From: Hansfordia pulvinata
Lineage: Eukaryota; Ascomycota; Sordariomycetes; Xylariales
DNA length: 64,000 nt
Reading direction: 5' to 3'
Assembly: GCA_006538405.1 (NCBI GenBank)
Contig: BJKQ01000006.1
Location: 558,001 to 622,000, forward strand
This document shows, one piece after another, positions 3,285 through 64,000 of the stretch. The first letter of the stretch is position 1, and each line of letters opens with the position of its first letter. Under the pieces are notes generated by a model that did not search any database, was not told the origin of the DNA, and saw nothing but the letters and a program-made list of their open reading frames with translations. A program made the translations under genes and the position numbers.

Positions 3285-5905
3285 GGTTGCTGCTGTGGTG
3301 TGTAAAGAACGTCTAGATCAAAGAGACGAGGGGCTGTTCTCTTGTGATCCGGTTGTGGCGAGAACGAGGGTCTATGGAGAGCGAGAGTGCGGGCGTAGCC
3401 AGGATAATAAGTAAGGGAGGGGCGGATTACGGAGTCAAAGACAGGCAGGATGAGTTAGTTGAATACCGCAGAGGTAGCCCAGGACCGAACCAAGAAAAAG
3501 CGAGCGTGTTAGTGAGTAGGGAGCCTGAAGGAACGAGAACAAGAGAACGGGCAGGATGAATAAGTCGGGGAGAGGTAGGCTGATCAAGTACGCGGATCCG
3601 ACGTCTGTCGTTTGTGAAGCTGACGGGTGGGGCTGCAGGCACCGGGATGGCTGCATCCACTGGGCGGACCTCTGTGCCTCTGCAAGCCCAAGCCCGGCAC
3701 GCGCAACATGAGTACACATGTACCTGAGTGAGTCCGATGCTGTACGTTCTTGGTGGGTACTTCTGTAGCGGTTTGCCCGCGGCACCCTACCCGGTCAGCC
3801 AGTACTTGACGAGTAGCCCGCGCAGGGCTGCCATTCAGGGCGCTGCCGACTGTCTCATTGCCCGCGCCAGACACTTCCGTGAGGACAATCATGGACAATG
3901 TCAACATCCACACCCATCGACATCAACATCAATACCAACACTCGGCTACTCGTACATAAATACCCTCTCCATACAGAGGAGCAACTCAAAACAAGAGCTG
4001 CATTCTTTCGCTTCATCTTCCACGCCTGCGACCTGCCTTCCATGTTTTGTCTCGACGCTACTGCGATCCGGCCCACGTCAGCCGGGCTTCGTCTGTCAAC
4101 GGCGCCGTCTCGAATCCCGAGCCACTCCTCCTGCCCGCCCAGCTTCCCTTTTCCAGCCAAGGCCTGTCATCCACCCGCGCGCGTTGAAGACGGAGGCAAG
4201 CAAGCACCCAACCCAAAAGAAACGACCAGGGTTCCCACCGTGCCACCGTGCCCACGAGCTGCCATGTCAAGTTCTCGGACCCATTCGGACGAGTACTCGT
4301 ACTCACCAGACCCGCCCACTGCGGAGCACGAGCGGGCCTTACACGTACGAGTCCTGGCGCAACTGGCACGGCCACCCAGAAGACGGTCCTTGTCTGCGAA
4401 TCGGCCCAATCAGACGCCCCTGTCCTCACCGGTGGAGCCGGCCACGCGCACGACTCACTCACTCGCCCACCTTCTCGCACCCAAGTCCCGCTGCCCAGGG
4501 GGAAAACAAGCATCGACTAGCCCGCTTGCAGCAAGGCCTGCCCGGAGGCCGCCTTTCTAGCCTCTTCTCGCAGCCTGCGTTGTGCTAAAAAAACACACAA
4601 ACGTCGACGTCAGGCTCCTCCTCCCCAGAGACTGCTCCGCCCGAGTAATCTGGGCAAATGCCGCGCTCCGTGTGCCGGTTTGCCTGTCGTGTCTGTCTCT
4701 GTTGACTGGAACTTGGGCCTACTCGTACTCGACGTGTGCGCAGATGGCAGGCATCTGTCCAGCAAGGGGCGGCCGCCACTCCATCTCTTCGACAAGAGCA
4801 CCTTCCTCCCCCCTTTCCGCCACAAGCAGCCGCCGTGCTCAGTCGTGTCAGTGGAGGGTGGCTTTTGTGGCGGCCACCCGGCCCTCCACCCGCCAGGGGT
4901 CGCCCGGTCTGTCGCGCGGTCCAGACCACGTCGTCACCCCCGAGGAAAACTGGGACCCCGTATTTGGGTCCTTGTCCCTGTTCTTCCCTGCCGAGGATCC
5001 AAGCTCCCTCCTCTCCGAGCTCCACCGTCCGATTCATCCGAGCGATAGGGAGACCGTGCTACCGTGCAGAGAGGCCTGAAAACGGAACCAAAACAAACAG
5101 AAAGCAAAGGGTGACGACAGCATTCGAGGAGGCCGGGTGGCCGGGTCCAGAATCCAACAGAAGCCCCAATCAATAACAGCCCTGCTCGGCTCAGTAGAAG
5201 CAGAAGGAGAAAGAAGCGTCTGTGTGCTCCATCCACTGGACGCCACGAGCTCAGACTGCTCAGGCGTGTGGAGATTTGCAGAAGAGCATGCCGCAAGCCC
5301 GCATTTCCACGCGTGCCAGCGGCATGCATGTCCGTACCTGCGTGGCACGATGCTCTCGCCAGACGCCATCACTGTTCGTCTCGGTCACCGCGCGTTTGCG
5401 CCGAGCGCCGTCCCTTGGGATGCTGCTCTTGGTACTGTGCAGCATTGCAACGTCAGGGTATCACCGGCCGAGCTGAATACGAGAGCCTTCTCTCTGCTCC
5501 TTGCCACCCAGGGTGCGCGCATGACGCTCTAATCAGAGCGACCGTGTGAGGGCAATAACAAGAATGACAGCCACCAACTTGTTCGGACATGGGAAAACAC
5601 AAACAACGCCAGGCGCGGAGCAGCTTGCGTCCGTTCATGTCATGTCACCTGCAAGAAGCGGCACCAACCGACACATTCGTCACTCGTCACTCGCCACCAC
5701 AGCCAACAGACTTTTCTGCCCGCTCCCCTTTCCCCTGGCTAACAGAATCTAGTAGACCGTCCAACCGGCCGAGCCTCTCCCCGGGGCCGAGCCACAGTCG
5801 AGTCGTGTCATGGGCTGGCCTTCTCCACGTTGCTCGGTACCTGCATTGGGACGCCCACTCGCGTGCGCGCCAGGGGTTGGGCATCCAAGGATCCTCCACA
5901 CTCAT

Positions 5906-5945
5906 CACACACACACACACACACACACACACACACACACACACA
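5906..5945. repeat. (CA)20 microsatellite
   Basis: An uninterrupted CA dinucleotide run of 40 bases lies between genes. The copy of the TACGAGTACTCGTA palindrome at 5958-5971 follows 12 bases later. Confidence 0.95.
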
Positions 5946-5957
5946 GACCAGTAGTAC

Positions 5958-5971
5958 TACGAGTACTCGTA
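5958..5971. repeat. 14-nt palindrome TACGAGTACTCGTA
   Basis: Two oppositely oriented copies of the dispersed 8-mer (TACGAGTA and TACTCGTA) overlap by two bases and form a perfect 14-nt palindrome. The same arrangement recurs at 37415-37428 and 63563-63576. Function unknown. Confidence 0.85.
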
Positions 5972-6854
5972 GTTCCCCGTCCCCTGCTTTTTGCCTGCTC
6001 TGCTAAGCATCTGCGGATGGCATCTCTCACGCCAATGCATGGGCGACCAGCTGGGGACCAACCTGAACCCTAGCCAACAGCGCGTCCCCATCGTGCCGTC
6101 GCGTCAGCAGTAATAAGGGCAGTTCCGCAGCCCGCGCTCCAGTCGCATAAGTCTGCGAGCGCCCCCTCTACTCGTGAAAAGAAACGTCTGCCTCGAGCAA
6201 CTCCGCGCGATCGCCTGCCAGCCTGTGTCACAACAGTTGCACATCGGCTCTATTCGGACGTGCTCGTAACCCTTCGTCCTTACTGTAGGTCAGGCGTTCA
6301 AGGCGGCTCCGGTGGGAACACATGCGGCACCAGAATGCCGCGCCAGCCAGAGTAATCAGCCAGCCCTACCGCACAACAGAGACACGACAGTCCGTATTCT
6401 GCAGTAAACACGTAGTAATCTGCACCATAGCAGCAACGGCCAGGTCAGGGCGCTGGGGAAATGCATCATAATGAAAACATGGAGAGAAAAAAAAGAGGAG
6501 CTACTGGGCTTGCTGGTGCGCGCTCCCTCGTAGACTCACTCGCCCGCTGGGTCGCTCGATGCTACCGTCTACACGCCAATTGGTCACGTAATCCACTCGC
6601 GAAGTGAAGGGGAAAAAAAATGTACGCGCGTCCAAATGCCAGCGCCCGCCCGCTGCATCCGCGGCCGCCGCTGGCCCAAGTTCGGGCTCCGGTATCGTAC
6701 GTACTCGTACGGAGGACTCCGCACCCCAGGCCCAGCGGGCCAGCATCAGCCCCATCCGCCCCCGTGCAAGCCGCTCATGTCGGTTAGCTTGCGCACTCGC
6801 CTGTCCCTCTCCTTGTCCTTGCTGTCGCCCTCCTTGGCCCTGTCCCGGTCCTTC

Positions 6855-62614: not shown

Positions 62615-63140
62615 GTGTCTCTGCTAGACTATAATCGGTGCTCTCCTTGTTCTCTCATCACAACACCCTCCGGCGGCGCGCCTTGCCGCTGCAGAACCCG
62701 GCCCCAGTACAAGCAACCCCGTCCCGTCCCTTTCCGTCCCTTCGAACGAATGAACGAACGAAAGTCTTGCCCCAAGCCAACTTGCGAGTATCGTATCTAG
62801 GGCACGCGGCACGCGCGGGGACCGGCCCCGGCGGCCCCCGTCACCCGAGACGGCACGGAAGATCTGGCGGTTGATCTGGCGCTGTTGAGTTATTTTAGTC
62901 GGGGCGTGCACAGTCACACCTATCTGTATTATTACGAGTACATATCGTGGAAGGTGCTGGTGGTCGTATGCTCCGTAAGCAACTAGCCTCTTCTCAGCTA
63001 GCTGGTCAGCAAAAGGGGAGGGCCTTCACGAGTAGTACTCGGAGCATTGTACAAGAAATAAAATATAATAAGATAAAATAAAGCCGGGCTAGCCGGGGTC
63101 CAACCATAACGGCGTGGAAGTACCCGTACGAGTTGGGTAC

Positions 63141-63170
63141 ACACACACACACACACACACACACACACAC
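63141..63170. repeat. (AC)n microsatellite
   Basis: A 30-base AC run close to a CCGTACGAGTTGGG variant of the dispersed motif at about 63123-63136. Confidence 0.9.
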
Positions 63171-63562
63171 TGAAGACCTTGCTGCTCGCTGCTGTCGGCG
63201 AAACGCCGATTGGCCAGCGGGCGGCGGCGAGAGAGAGAGGACTCGTCTTCCCCTCCGGTGCTGTGCCGTTCCGCTCCCTGCCCAGGCGAAGATGGCTGAT
63301 GAAAGAGGCACGAGAGTTTCGACTTTTGTACGACCGGGACGACGAGGACTGGGCCCAGCACCAAGTGTCAGGTGTGTTTACGAGTACTGCCAAGTCGTGA
63401 GGAGCGAGAAGCCGTGAGAGCAAAAAATAGATCATCACAGAGACAGAGAAGAAAGACGACAGACTTCTCCCGATACAGCAAAGACATTTAGACGAGCTAA
63501 TCCATACGATAAGCTAGACCAGGGGGCGCGAGCAGTGTCGGTGCAAGCGCCGATGACTACGC

Positions 63563-63576
63563 TACGAGTACTCGTA
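63563..63576. repeat. 14-nt palindrome TACGAGTACTCGTA
   Basis: Third perfect 14-nt palindrome formed by overlapping opposite copies of the dispersed 8-mer, in the gene-free right end. Confidence 0.85.
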
Positions 63577-64000
63577 CAATGCCAGACGTCGCCAGCATCG
63601 CCGACGACGCCCGTCTTCCAACATCATCACCAAGGCACGAGTAACTCATCACTCATCAGACTACGAGTAGTCAGCAGCTCGCGCGCGCATGCAGATGTGC
63701 GAGTACGACAAAACCCGCGCGGAAACCATCCCGCCCCAGGCCAACCCCCCGGGAACCCCCAGGGGAGGAGGAGAGAGGGGGACGATGCTGCTCGGTGACG
63801 GTGACGAACACTACACACCACCACCACCACCACCACCCTTTTTTCTATCTCTCTTTTCTCCCTCCCCCCCCCCAAAGTCTGGGGAGAGAGGAGGGGCGGG
63901 AGCGGTCTGTCAAGCGCCCACCTACTCGTACGGGATATACGTGTGAGCTGTCTGTCCGTTGCCAGCTTTTGCTTTCCAAACAACAAGAAGAGCGGAACCT

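What the first reader, a model, noticed from the sequence alone, without database searches (positions are those of the whole stretch)
3947..63930. Dispersed 8-mer TACTCGTA/TACGAGTA, about 50 copies, all between genes
By hand I count about 50 copies, starting at 3947, 4294, 4720, 5958, 5964, 6702, 11340, 17851, 17936, 18056, 18066, 18092, 19001, 19222, 19416, 19432, 24815, 26388, 26664, 27278, 28006, 28212, 31556, 35773, 36205, 36388, 36824, 36962, 37415, 37421, 37608, 44334, 53165, 59795, 59957, 60031, 60583, 60869, 61219, 61851, 61992, 62127, 62188, 62229, 62933, 63379, 63563, 63569, 63662 and 63923. None falls in the roughly 26 kb of coding regions I call, although random expectation over 64 kb is about one or two. 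Many near-misses (TACTCGTG, TACTCGCA, TACGCGTA) share the same spaces. It is not part of one long repeat, since flanks differ. It could be a very common protein-binding site, an insulator-like signal, or the residue of a short self-spreading palindrome. I do not know of a described element that matches.
Basis: seen in the sequence. Interest (0 to 1): 0.78.

Follow-up and report, generated by a model that had tools for sequence, protein, structure and literature searches.

The report
Genome-wide upstream DNA word TACTCGTA
A fungus related to the Xylariales carries about 19,000 copies of one eight-letter DNA word, mostly or wholly between its genes, most likely a binding site for a gene-regulating protein and one letter shorter than a site already known from Aspergillus.

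Summary
All 50 starts are exact (shuffles expect 0.56). The 46.8-Mb assembly has 19,158 copies against 1,309 of the reversed word. In a 304-kb sample 0 of 133 copies lie in called coding sequence, but codon usage predicts only about 1 there, so the excess outside genes is the real signal. The fuller consensus is G-TAC-TC-GTA-C, a near dyad. Copies are scarce near gene 3' ends and within 300 bp of starts, and dense further upstream and far from genes; convergent gaps hold 2 in 29 kb against 0.6-0.8 per kb elsewhere (p 0.017). They show no strand preference and cluster.

The closest known thing is GTACTCCGTAC, the site of the factor SomA in Aspergillus fumigatus (PMC7667024). The window word has the same half-sites and the same centre less one C. 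The 9-base core TACTCCGTA also occurs here, but rarely: 7 against 133.

Best reading: the binding site of an upstream regulator of the SomA-site class, with a 2-base instead of a 3-base spacer. Which protein binds it is not shown. Neutral birth and decay is not excluded. Transposon footprints were not supported.

The parts
3947..3954 (+). TACTCGTA copy
4294..4301 (+). TACTCGTA copy, full GTACTCGTAC
4720..4727 (+). TACTCGTA copy
5958..5965 (-). TACTCGTA copy; with 5964 makes the palindrome TACGAGTACTCGTA
5964..5971 (+). TACTCGTA copy, overlapping 5958
6702..6709 (+). TACTCGTA copy, full GTACTCGTAC
11340..11347 (+). TACTCGTA copy
17851..17858 (-). TACTCGTA copy in divergent gap 17.5-20.6 kb (9 copies)
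17936..17943 (+). TACTCGTA copy, full GTACTCGTAC
18056..18063 (-). TACTCGTA copy
18066..18073 (+). TACTCGTA copy, full GTACTCGTAC
18092..18099 (-). TACTCGTA copy, full GTACTCGTAC
19001..19008 (-). TACTCGTA copy, full GTACTCGTAC
19222..19229 (-). TACTCGTA copy
19416..19423 (-). TACTCGTA copy
19432..19439 (+). TACTCGTA copy
24815..24822 (-). TACTCGTA copy upstream of the EMP70 gene (6 copies in that gap)
26388..26395 (+). TACTCGTA copy upstream of EMP70
26664..26671 (+). TACTCGTA copy upstream of EMP70, full GTACTCGTAC
27278..27285 (-). TACTCGTA copy upstream of EMP70
28006..28013 (+). TACTCGTA copy upstream of EMP70, full GTACTCGTAC
28212..28219 (+). TACTCGTA copy upstream of EMP70, full GTACTCGTAC
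31556..31563 (+). TACTCGTA copy upstream of a C2H2 zinc-finger gene
35773..35780 (-). TACTCGTA copy in gap 34.7-38.8 kb (8 copies)
36205..36212 (+). TACTCGTA copy
36388..36395 (+). TACTCGTA copy
36824..36831 (-). TACTCGTA copy
36962..36969 (-). TACTCGTA copy, full GTACTCGTAC
37415..37422 (-). TACTCGTA copy; with 37421 makes TACGAGTACTCGTA
37421..37428 (+). TACTCGTA copy, full GTACTCGTAC
37543..37551 (+). TACTCCGTA: the one 9-base, SomA-type core word found in the window
37608..37615 (+). TACTCGTA copy
44334..44341 (-). TACTCGTA copy
53165..53172 (+). TACTCGTA copy upstream of the Rab GDI gene, full GTACTCGTAC
59795..59802 (-). TACTCGTA copy, full GTACTCGTAC; first of 17 window copies in the gene-free stretch that runs past the window end
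59957..59964 (+). TACTCGTA copy
60031..60038 (+). TACTCGTA copy
60583..60590 (+). TACTCGTA copy
60869..60876 (+). TACTCGTA copy
61219..61226 (+). TACTCGTA copy
61851..61858 (-). TACTCGTA copy
61992..61999 (-). TACTCGTA copy, full GTACTCGTAC
62127..62134 (+). TACTCGTA copy
62188..62195 (+). TACTCGTA copy, full GTACTCGTAC
62229..62236 (-). TACTCGTA copy
62933..62940 (-). TACTCGTA copy
63379..63386 (-). TACTCGTA copy
63563..63570 (-). TACTCGTA copy; with 63569 makes TACGAGTACTCGTA
63569..63576 (+). TACTCGTA copy, full GTACTCGTAC
63662..63669 (-). TACTCGTA copy
63923..63930 (+). TACTCGTA copy

Best explanation
TACTCGTA, more fully G-TAC-TC-GTA-C, is the double-stranded binding site of a sequence-specific regulator that sits in upstream intergenic DNA of this filamentous ascomycete. 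It reads as two inverted TAC/GTA half-sites around a TC/GA centre and is a one-base-shorter variant of GTACTCCGTAC, the site bound by the transcription factor SomA (counterpart of yeast Flo8) in Aspergillus fumigatus. Copies occur in either orientation, often several per upstream region, and would recruit the factor to promoters at a distance. Shown here: the excess, near symmetry, flank preference, upstream bias, clustering, lack of strand preference, and likeness to the SomA site. Inferred: that a protein binds it, that the protein is SomA or a relative, and that binding regulates the neighbouring genes.
For: Excess of about 15 to 23 fold over controls; the 10-mer GTACTCGTAC reaches 5,536 vs 201 reversed. 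Flanks of 133 sites: G at -1 in 81, C at +1 in 70, purine at -3 in 94, pyrimidine at +3 in 82, a mirror-image pattern; G(-1) and C(+1) vary independently. One strongly favoured spacing: TAC-N2-GTA 219 places vs 25 expected, spacers 0, 1 and 3-8 give 26 to 70. Orientation against the downstream gene within 3 kb: 40 same, 43 opposite, so not an RNA signal. Density 0.93 per kb at 300-600 bp from a start but 0.14 per kb within 600 bp of a 3' end, while composition-matched words stay nearly flat, 24 to 31 per kb. Convergent gaps hold 2 copies where relabelling within length classes expects 14.6, one-sided p 0.017. Clustering: 64 of 122 sites have a neighbour within 200 bp, random mean 33.1, largest of 1,000 was 53. 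SomA: MEME frequency 119/476 of shared ChIP-seq peaks for GTACTCCGTAC, EMSA binding blocked by mutation of the site, sites 983 to 2,506 bp upstream of agd3, gtb3 and ega3 (PMC7667024 section 9). Among 3-base centres here the commonest is that same TCC.
Against: No binding, expression or comparative data are available. 19,158 copies far exceed the 476 shared SomA peaks of A. fumigatus, and SomA sites there also occur in an ORF and a 3' UTR (sph3). Exact: one-mismatch: two-mismatch excess is about 131: 188-190: 336-358 (five control words give 19-187 at two mismatches), so exact copies are not in excess over what unselected birth and decay would leave, and selection on them is not shown. The related words do not show a significant convergent deficit (one-mismatch 14 vs 21.6, p 0.33; other TACNNGTA 4 vs 10.0, p 0.14). 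Within tandem gaps the drift toward the downstream gene is weak (26 first half, 36 second half). The highest density, 1.45 per kb, is more than 2 kb from the nearest 3' end, so part of the bias may only be avoidance of transcribed UTRs. Gene calls are home-made.
Confidence: 0.6

Rival explanations
1. The same kind of regulatory site, but read by another protein (a zinc-cluster, C2H2 or unknown dimeric factor), with the likeness to the SomA site being chance or convergence.
For: TACGGAGTA is one of six MEME motifs in UvCGBP1 ChIP peaks of Ustilaginoidea virens (PMC8344781), and CTACGGAGTA overlaps a predicted C6 zinc-cluster motif in A. nidulans (PMC12153272). TACATGTA and TACGCGTA are also about 12 and 9 fold enriched, so several factors may read GTAC-type dyads.
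Against: TACTCGTA/TACGAGTA contains no CGG, the usual zinc-cluster triplet (recalled), and no AGGGG, the core shown by EMSA for UvCGBP1. GTACTCGTAC equals the SomA site with one C missing.
Confidence: 0.22
2. A short self-spreading or mutationally generated word with no function: copies arise by some copying or repair process and decay neutrally, surviving where sequence is unconstrained.
For: One- and two-mismatch excesses (188-190 and 336-358 beside 131 exact) are at least as large as the 1.14 and 1.33 times exact expected from constant birth with neutral decay (my calculation); control words give 19-187 at two mismatches. Whole-genome counts of four single-change words are modest (TACTTGTA 1,740, TACTCATA 1,122, TATTCGTA 1,214, TACTCGCA 3,747). 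Copies avoid coding and probable UTR sequence.
Against: No process that writes a precise 8-mer with mirror-image flanks is known to me. Copies are nearly absent from eight transposase loci (1 in 27.3 kb, 11.2 expected at the genome mean), though TACCTA is scarce there too (3 in 27.3 kb). Convergent gaps are poor in copies while composition-matched words are not.
Confidence: 0.12
3. Excision footprints of a TA-target DNA transposon, TA-CTCG-TA at G-TA-C sites.
For: TA at both ends, other TA-x-TA words in excess (TACCTA, TACATGTA, TACGCGTA; TA-N2-TA 982 and TA-N4-TA 952 vs 379 expected, simple repeats included), nested words such as TACGAGTACTCGTA.
Against: Only 8 DDE_1 and 2 DDE_3 matches in the genome. 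Of six DDE_1 loci scanned (of eight fetched), three (L033, L037, L038) show TA-flanked ends and these begin ACGTCCC, not CTCG; the other three gave no clear ends. The ends of the DDE_3 loci were not seen. No TA-CTCG...CGAG-TA inverted-repeat element in 304 kb. One longer footprint form looked for, TACTCTCGTA, has 0 copies in 304 kb.
Confidence: 0.03
4. Remnants of a longer interspersed repeat.
For: High copy number.
Against: Flank information falls to near zero beyond a few bases, and a 271-base stretch holding five copies matches only itself in the genome (one stretch tested).
Confidence: 0.01

Closest known systems
SomA binding site GTACTCCGTAC, Aspergillus fumigatus (PMC7667024, PMC10900910)
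   Same: GTAC half-sites on both sides, TC centre, upstream sites 983 to 2,506 bp from starts, more than one site at some targets (ega3, medA, stuA).
   Different: Spacer is 3 bases (TCC) there, 2 (TC) here; 476 shared peaks there against 19,158 word copies here; sites in an ORF and a 3' UTR also reported there; binding not tested here.
CTACGGAGTA, over-represented word of A. fumigatus Af293 and repeat of the Starship element Tardis (PMC12153272)
   Same: An extreme-outlier genomic k-mer of the same build (TAC-TCC-GTA read on the other strand), suspected there to be a transcription-factor site.
   Different: 9-base core with 3-base centre; it contains CGG, ours does not; no Starship was looked for here.
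TACGGAGTA motif in UvCGBP1 ChIP-seq peaks, Ustilaginoidea virens (PMC8344781)
   Same: The same word family in bound regions of another sordariomycete.
   Different: 3-base centre, one of six motifs; EMSA there was done for the AGGGG motif, so it may be a co-occurring site.
Tc1/mariner/pogo excision footprints (recalled)
   Same: TA on both sides of a few bases.
   Different: No element with matching ends found.

Membership tests
SomA-type site (GTACTCCGTAC) | Two GTAC half-sites in mirror image | tested here: met
   TAC and GTA are fixed by choice of word; flanks G(-1) 81 of 133 and C(+1) 70 of 133; GTACTCGTAC 5,536 vs 201 control genome-wide
SomA-type site (GTACTCCGTAC) | Three-base centre TCC | tested here: not met
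   Centre is TC; TAC-TC-GTA 133, TAC-TCC-GTA 7, full GTACTCCGTAC 1 in 304 kb
SomA-type site (GTACTCCGTAC) | Lies upstream of genes | tested here: met
   Density by distance and gap type, p 0.017 for convergent gaps; home-made gene calls; drift within tandem gaps weak
SomA-type site (GTACTCCGTAC) | Bound by SomA/Flo8 orthologue | not testable with these tools
   No binding data
SomA-type site (GTACTCCGTAC) | SomA orthologue present in the genome | not tested
SomA-type site (GTACTCCGTAC) | Upstream of cell-wall and developmental targets (medA, stuA, chitin and glucan synthases) | not tested
   None of these genes was sought in the genome
C6 zinc-cluster site | CGG/CCG triplet (recalled) | tested here: not met
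   Neither strand of TACTCGTA holds CGG or CCG (the word itself)
UvCGBP1 G-box | AGGGG core | tested here: not met
   Word lacks it; core
TA-transposon excision footprint | Resident element with TA duplication and ends beginning CTCG | tested here: not met
   ends of the two DDE_3 loci not seen
Longer interspersed repeat | Homologous flanks between copies | tested here: not met
   (133 sites aligned); one search tested one 271-base cluster only

The most novel reading that the evidence does not exclude
An ancient, very abundant regulatory site (GTAC-TCC-GTAC in Aspergillus) has been rewritten across a whole genome into GTAC-TC-GTAC, a one-base spacer shift at thousands of places, because its SomA/Flo8-type regulator or its partner changed geometry. 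This would be a case of wholesale co-evolution of a transcription factor and some 19,000 sites, with the factor acting as a general organiser of upstream regions and not as a specialised regulator.
Probability: 0.25. Interest if true: 0.75.

Novelty: new variant of a known kind. Interest (0 to 1): 0.52.

Why it matters
If right, one short word marks upstream regulatory DNA across a whole fungal genome and links it to a factor of the Flo8/SomA class that governs biofilm, cell wall and development elsewhere. The spacer difference between lineages makes a sharp question testable: how does a site with thousands of copies change length without breaking its network? It also gives a practical handle for finding the factor and for reading promoters in Xylariales-like fungi.

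Tried and rejected
Chance or base composition: rejected. RNA-level signal: no strand preference against the downstream gene, 40 vs 43; no Rfam match at gathering cut-offs in the window. Longer repeat: rejected for one cluster. Coding avoidance as the key feature: not informative, 1.06 copies expected there. Transposon footprints: not supported. Neutral decay: whole-genome counts of four single-change words did not settle it. Housekeeping genes seemed poorer in copies (15 consecutive called genes from C1:312484 to C1:346948 have none in their upstream gaps, and carry among others lactate/malate dehydrogenase, glutathione synthase and P5A-ATPase domains), but I made no test. Close pairs: TACTCGTA...TACTCGTA with a gap of 0-30 bases 425 vs 6 in the reversed control, TACGAGTA...TACTCGTA 287 vs 0; I did not analyse spacing further. 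Literature: searches for TACTCGTA, TACGAGTA and 10-base forms showed no title or abstract start naming it as a motif; two searches found no paper, the others listed 20 of 38, 15 of 22 and 40 of 57, and I opened none of those. General searches led nowhere. The SomA lead came (30 of 181 listed; 14 of 14). Two further papers opened were false leads: in PMC12430421 and PMC6414702 the word lies in primers.

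
Full report
Setting. The window is C6:558001-622000 of a 46.8-Mb, 63-contig assembly. Pfam finds ordinary fungal genes: hamartin, a DJ-1-like protein, ribosomal L23, calcium-dependent channel, EMP70, C2H2 zinc finger, mitochondrial carrier, eIF2B, Rab GDI, MRP-L47. 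G+C is about 61%.

The observation. Shuffles expect 0.56. The whole assembly has 19,158 copies against 1,309 for the reversed word. In 304 kb (window, 40 kb around it, 200 kb of C1) there are 133 against 5.8 by an order-3 model, the strongest excess of the complex 8-mers compared. A simple HMM gene finder called about 96 kb of the 304 kb coding. None of 133 copies is in it, also when the word is blanked from training and scoring. Codon usage predicts 1.06 copies there, so the point is the excess outside genes. Coding status was tested on the sample, not on the whole genome.

Shape of the word. Every position counts. The 24 one-change words total 254 in noncoding DNA, against 74 to 102 expected from models of order 2 to 4, led by transitions at the outer positions and by TACGCGTA. 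Outside the 8-mer, G precedes (81 of 133), C follows (70), purine at -3 (94) and pyrimidine at +3 (82): a mirror-image pattern. The consensus is thus G-TAC-TC-GTA-C. TAC-N2-GTA is the only strongly favoured spacing of those counted (0 to 8): 219 places against 25 expected, the others 26 to 70. Across the genome TACNNGTA has 31,894 places against 11,429 for its reversed control, and 19,158 of them are the TC/GA form.

Where it lies. By distance to the nearest called gene, density is 0.23 per kb within 300 bp of a start, 0.93 at 300-600 bp and 0.67 to 0.96 beyond; near 3' ends it is 0.14 within 600 bp, 0.37 at 600-1000 bp, 0.63 at 1-2 kb and 1.45 further out. Composition-matched words are nearly flat over the same bins, 24 to 31 per kb. 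Convergent gaps hold 2 copies in 29.2 kb, tandem gaps 100 in 122.6 kb, divergent gaps 28 in 46.6 kb. Relabelling gaps within length classes expects 14.6 in the convergent ones (one-sided p 0.017). The same test is not significant for one-mismatch words (14 vs 21.6, p 0.33), for the other TACNNGTA words (4 vs 10.0, p 0.14) or for TACCTA (22 vs 26.5, p 0.37). Within tandem gaps of 1-7 kb the lean toward the downstream gene is slight (26 vs 36 of 62). Copies show no strand preference (40 vs 43) and cluster (64 of 122 with a neighbour within 200 bp, random mean 33.1). Copy number over 60 non-convergent gaps is uneven (chi-square per degree of freedom 1.87; observed 110, mean of 5,000 simulations 59, their maximum 129). 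Eight transposase loci hold 1 copy in 27.3 kb where the genome mean gives 11.2, but TACCTA is scarce there too, 3 copies.

What it is not. It is not part of a longer repeat as far as tested: flanks of 133 sites carry almost no information beyond a few bases, and a 271-base stretch with five copies matches only itself. It is not likely an RNA signal. I tested whether TA-CTCG-TA could be the footprint of a TA-target transposon, because other TA-x-TA words are also in excess. The genome has 8 DDE_1 and 2 DDE_3 matches. No element with CTCG ends turned up in 304 kb. That idea is not supported.

Neutral birth and decay. If exact words were made at a steady rate and then drifted, one- and two-change words should exceed background about 1.14 and 1.33 times as much as exact ones (my calculation). 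Observed excesses are 131, 188-190 and 336-358, the last inflated by model error (five control words give 19-187). The excess of near words is thus at least what neutrality needs, and exact copies do not stand out as specially kept. A binding site with tolerated variants would give the same picture, so the test is not decisive.

Closest known. SomA of Aspergillus fumigatus binds GTACTCCGTAC: MEME frequency 119/476 of shared ChIP-seq peaks, EMSA, loss on mutation, sites 983 to 2,506 bp upstream of three genes, and also sites in an ORF and a 3' UTR (PMC7667024; I read section 9 whole and other passages). That paper treats yeast Flo8 as its orthologue; that the family bears a LisH domain is recalled. 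EMSA on the meaB promoter repeats it (PMC10900910, one passage). The same word family is an extreme k-mer outlier in A. fumigatus Af293 and the direct repeat of the Starship Tardis, conserved in other Eurotiomycetes and suspected there to be a transcription-factor site (PMC12153272, passages), and one of six motifs in UvCGBP1 peaks in Ustilaginoidea virens (PMC8344781, passages). Here the word is the same but for one C: GTAC-TC-GTAC. The 9-base core occurs too (TACTCCGTA, 7 in 304 kb) and is the commonest 3-base centre, but the 8-base form is 19 times commoner. Since the spacer is a defining part of the site and it differs, I do not file the word as a SomA site. I say that it works like one, and that the protein reading it is probably SomA or a factor with the same half-site geometry. 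The zinc-cluster reading proposed for the Aspergillus word does not carry over easily, as this word lacks CGG.

Verdict. What remains open is which protein, whether copies are under selection, and how the spacer changed.

Noticed in passing
window 60164-60209: A hairpin with a 21-base-pair stem and 4-base loop in gene-free DNA; the stretch 60150-60230 folds at -47.5 kcal/mol, z -7.4. Resembles a short inverted-repeat element or small-RNA precursor.
   Followed up: partly
window 58527-64000 and on to C6:640078 (L031, L032): About 23.5 kb without a called gene holding 38 copies of the word; the ORFs of L031 look unconvincing by eye. Could be a very long upstream region or a non-coding transcript locus.
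   Followed up: partly
window and L009-L032, noncoding: A second enriched word family TACCTA/TAGGTA (189 in 304 kb), often doubled as TAGGTACCTA or TACCTAGGTA, also as GTACCTAC, with no convergent-gap deficit.
   Followed up: partly
C1:312484-348475 (L020-L023): 15 consecutive called genes, several of them housekeeping by Pfam, with no copy of the word in their upstream gaps.
   Followed up: no
L033, L037, L038 (contigs C24, C43, C23): Pogo/Fot1-like (DDE_1) elements of about 1.85 kb with TA target duplication and ends beginning ACGTCCC; loci of 48-50% G+C against 61% in the window.
   Followed up: no
window 59841-59952: Long (CTGT)n tandem array directly before a copy at 59957.
   Followed up: no
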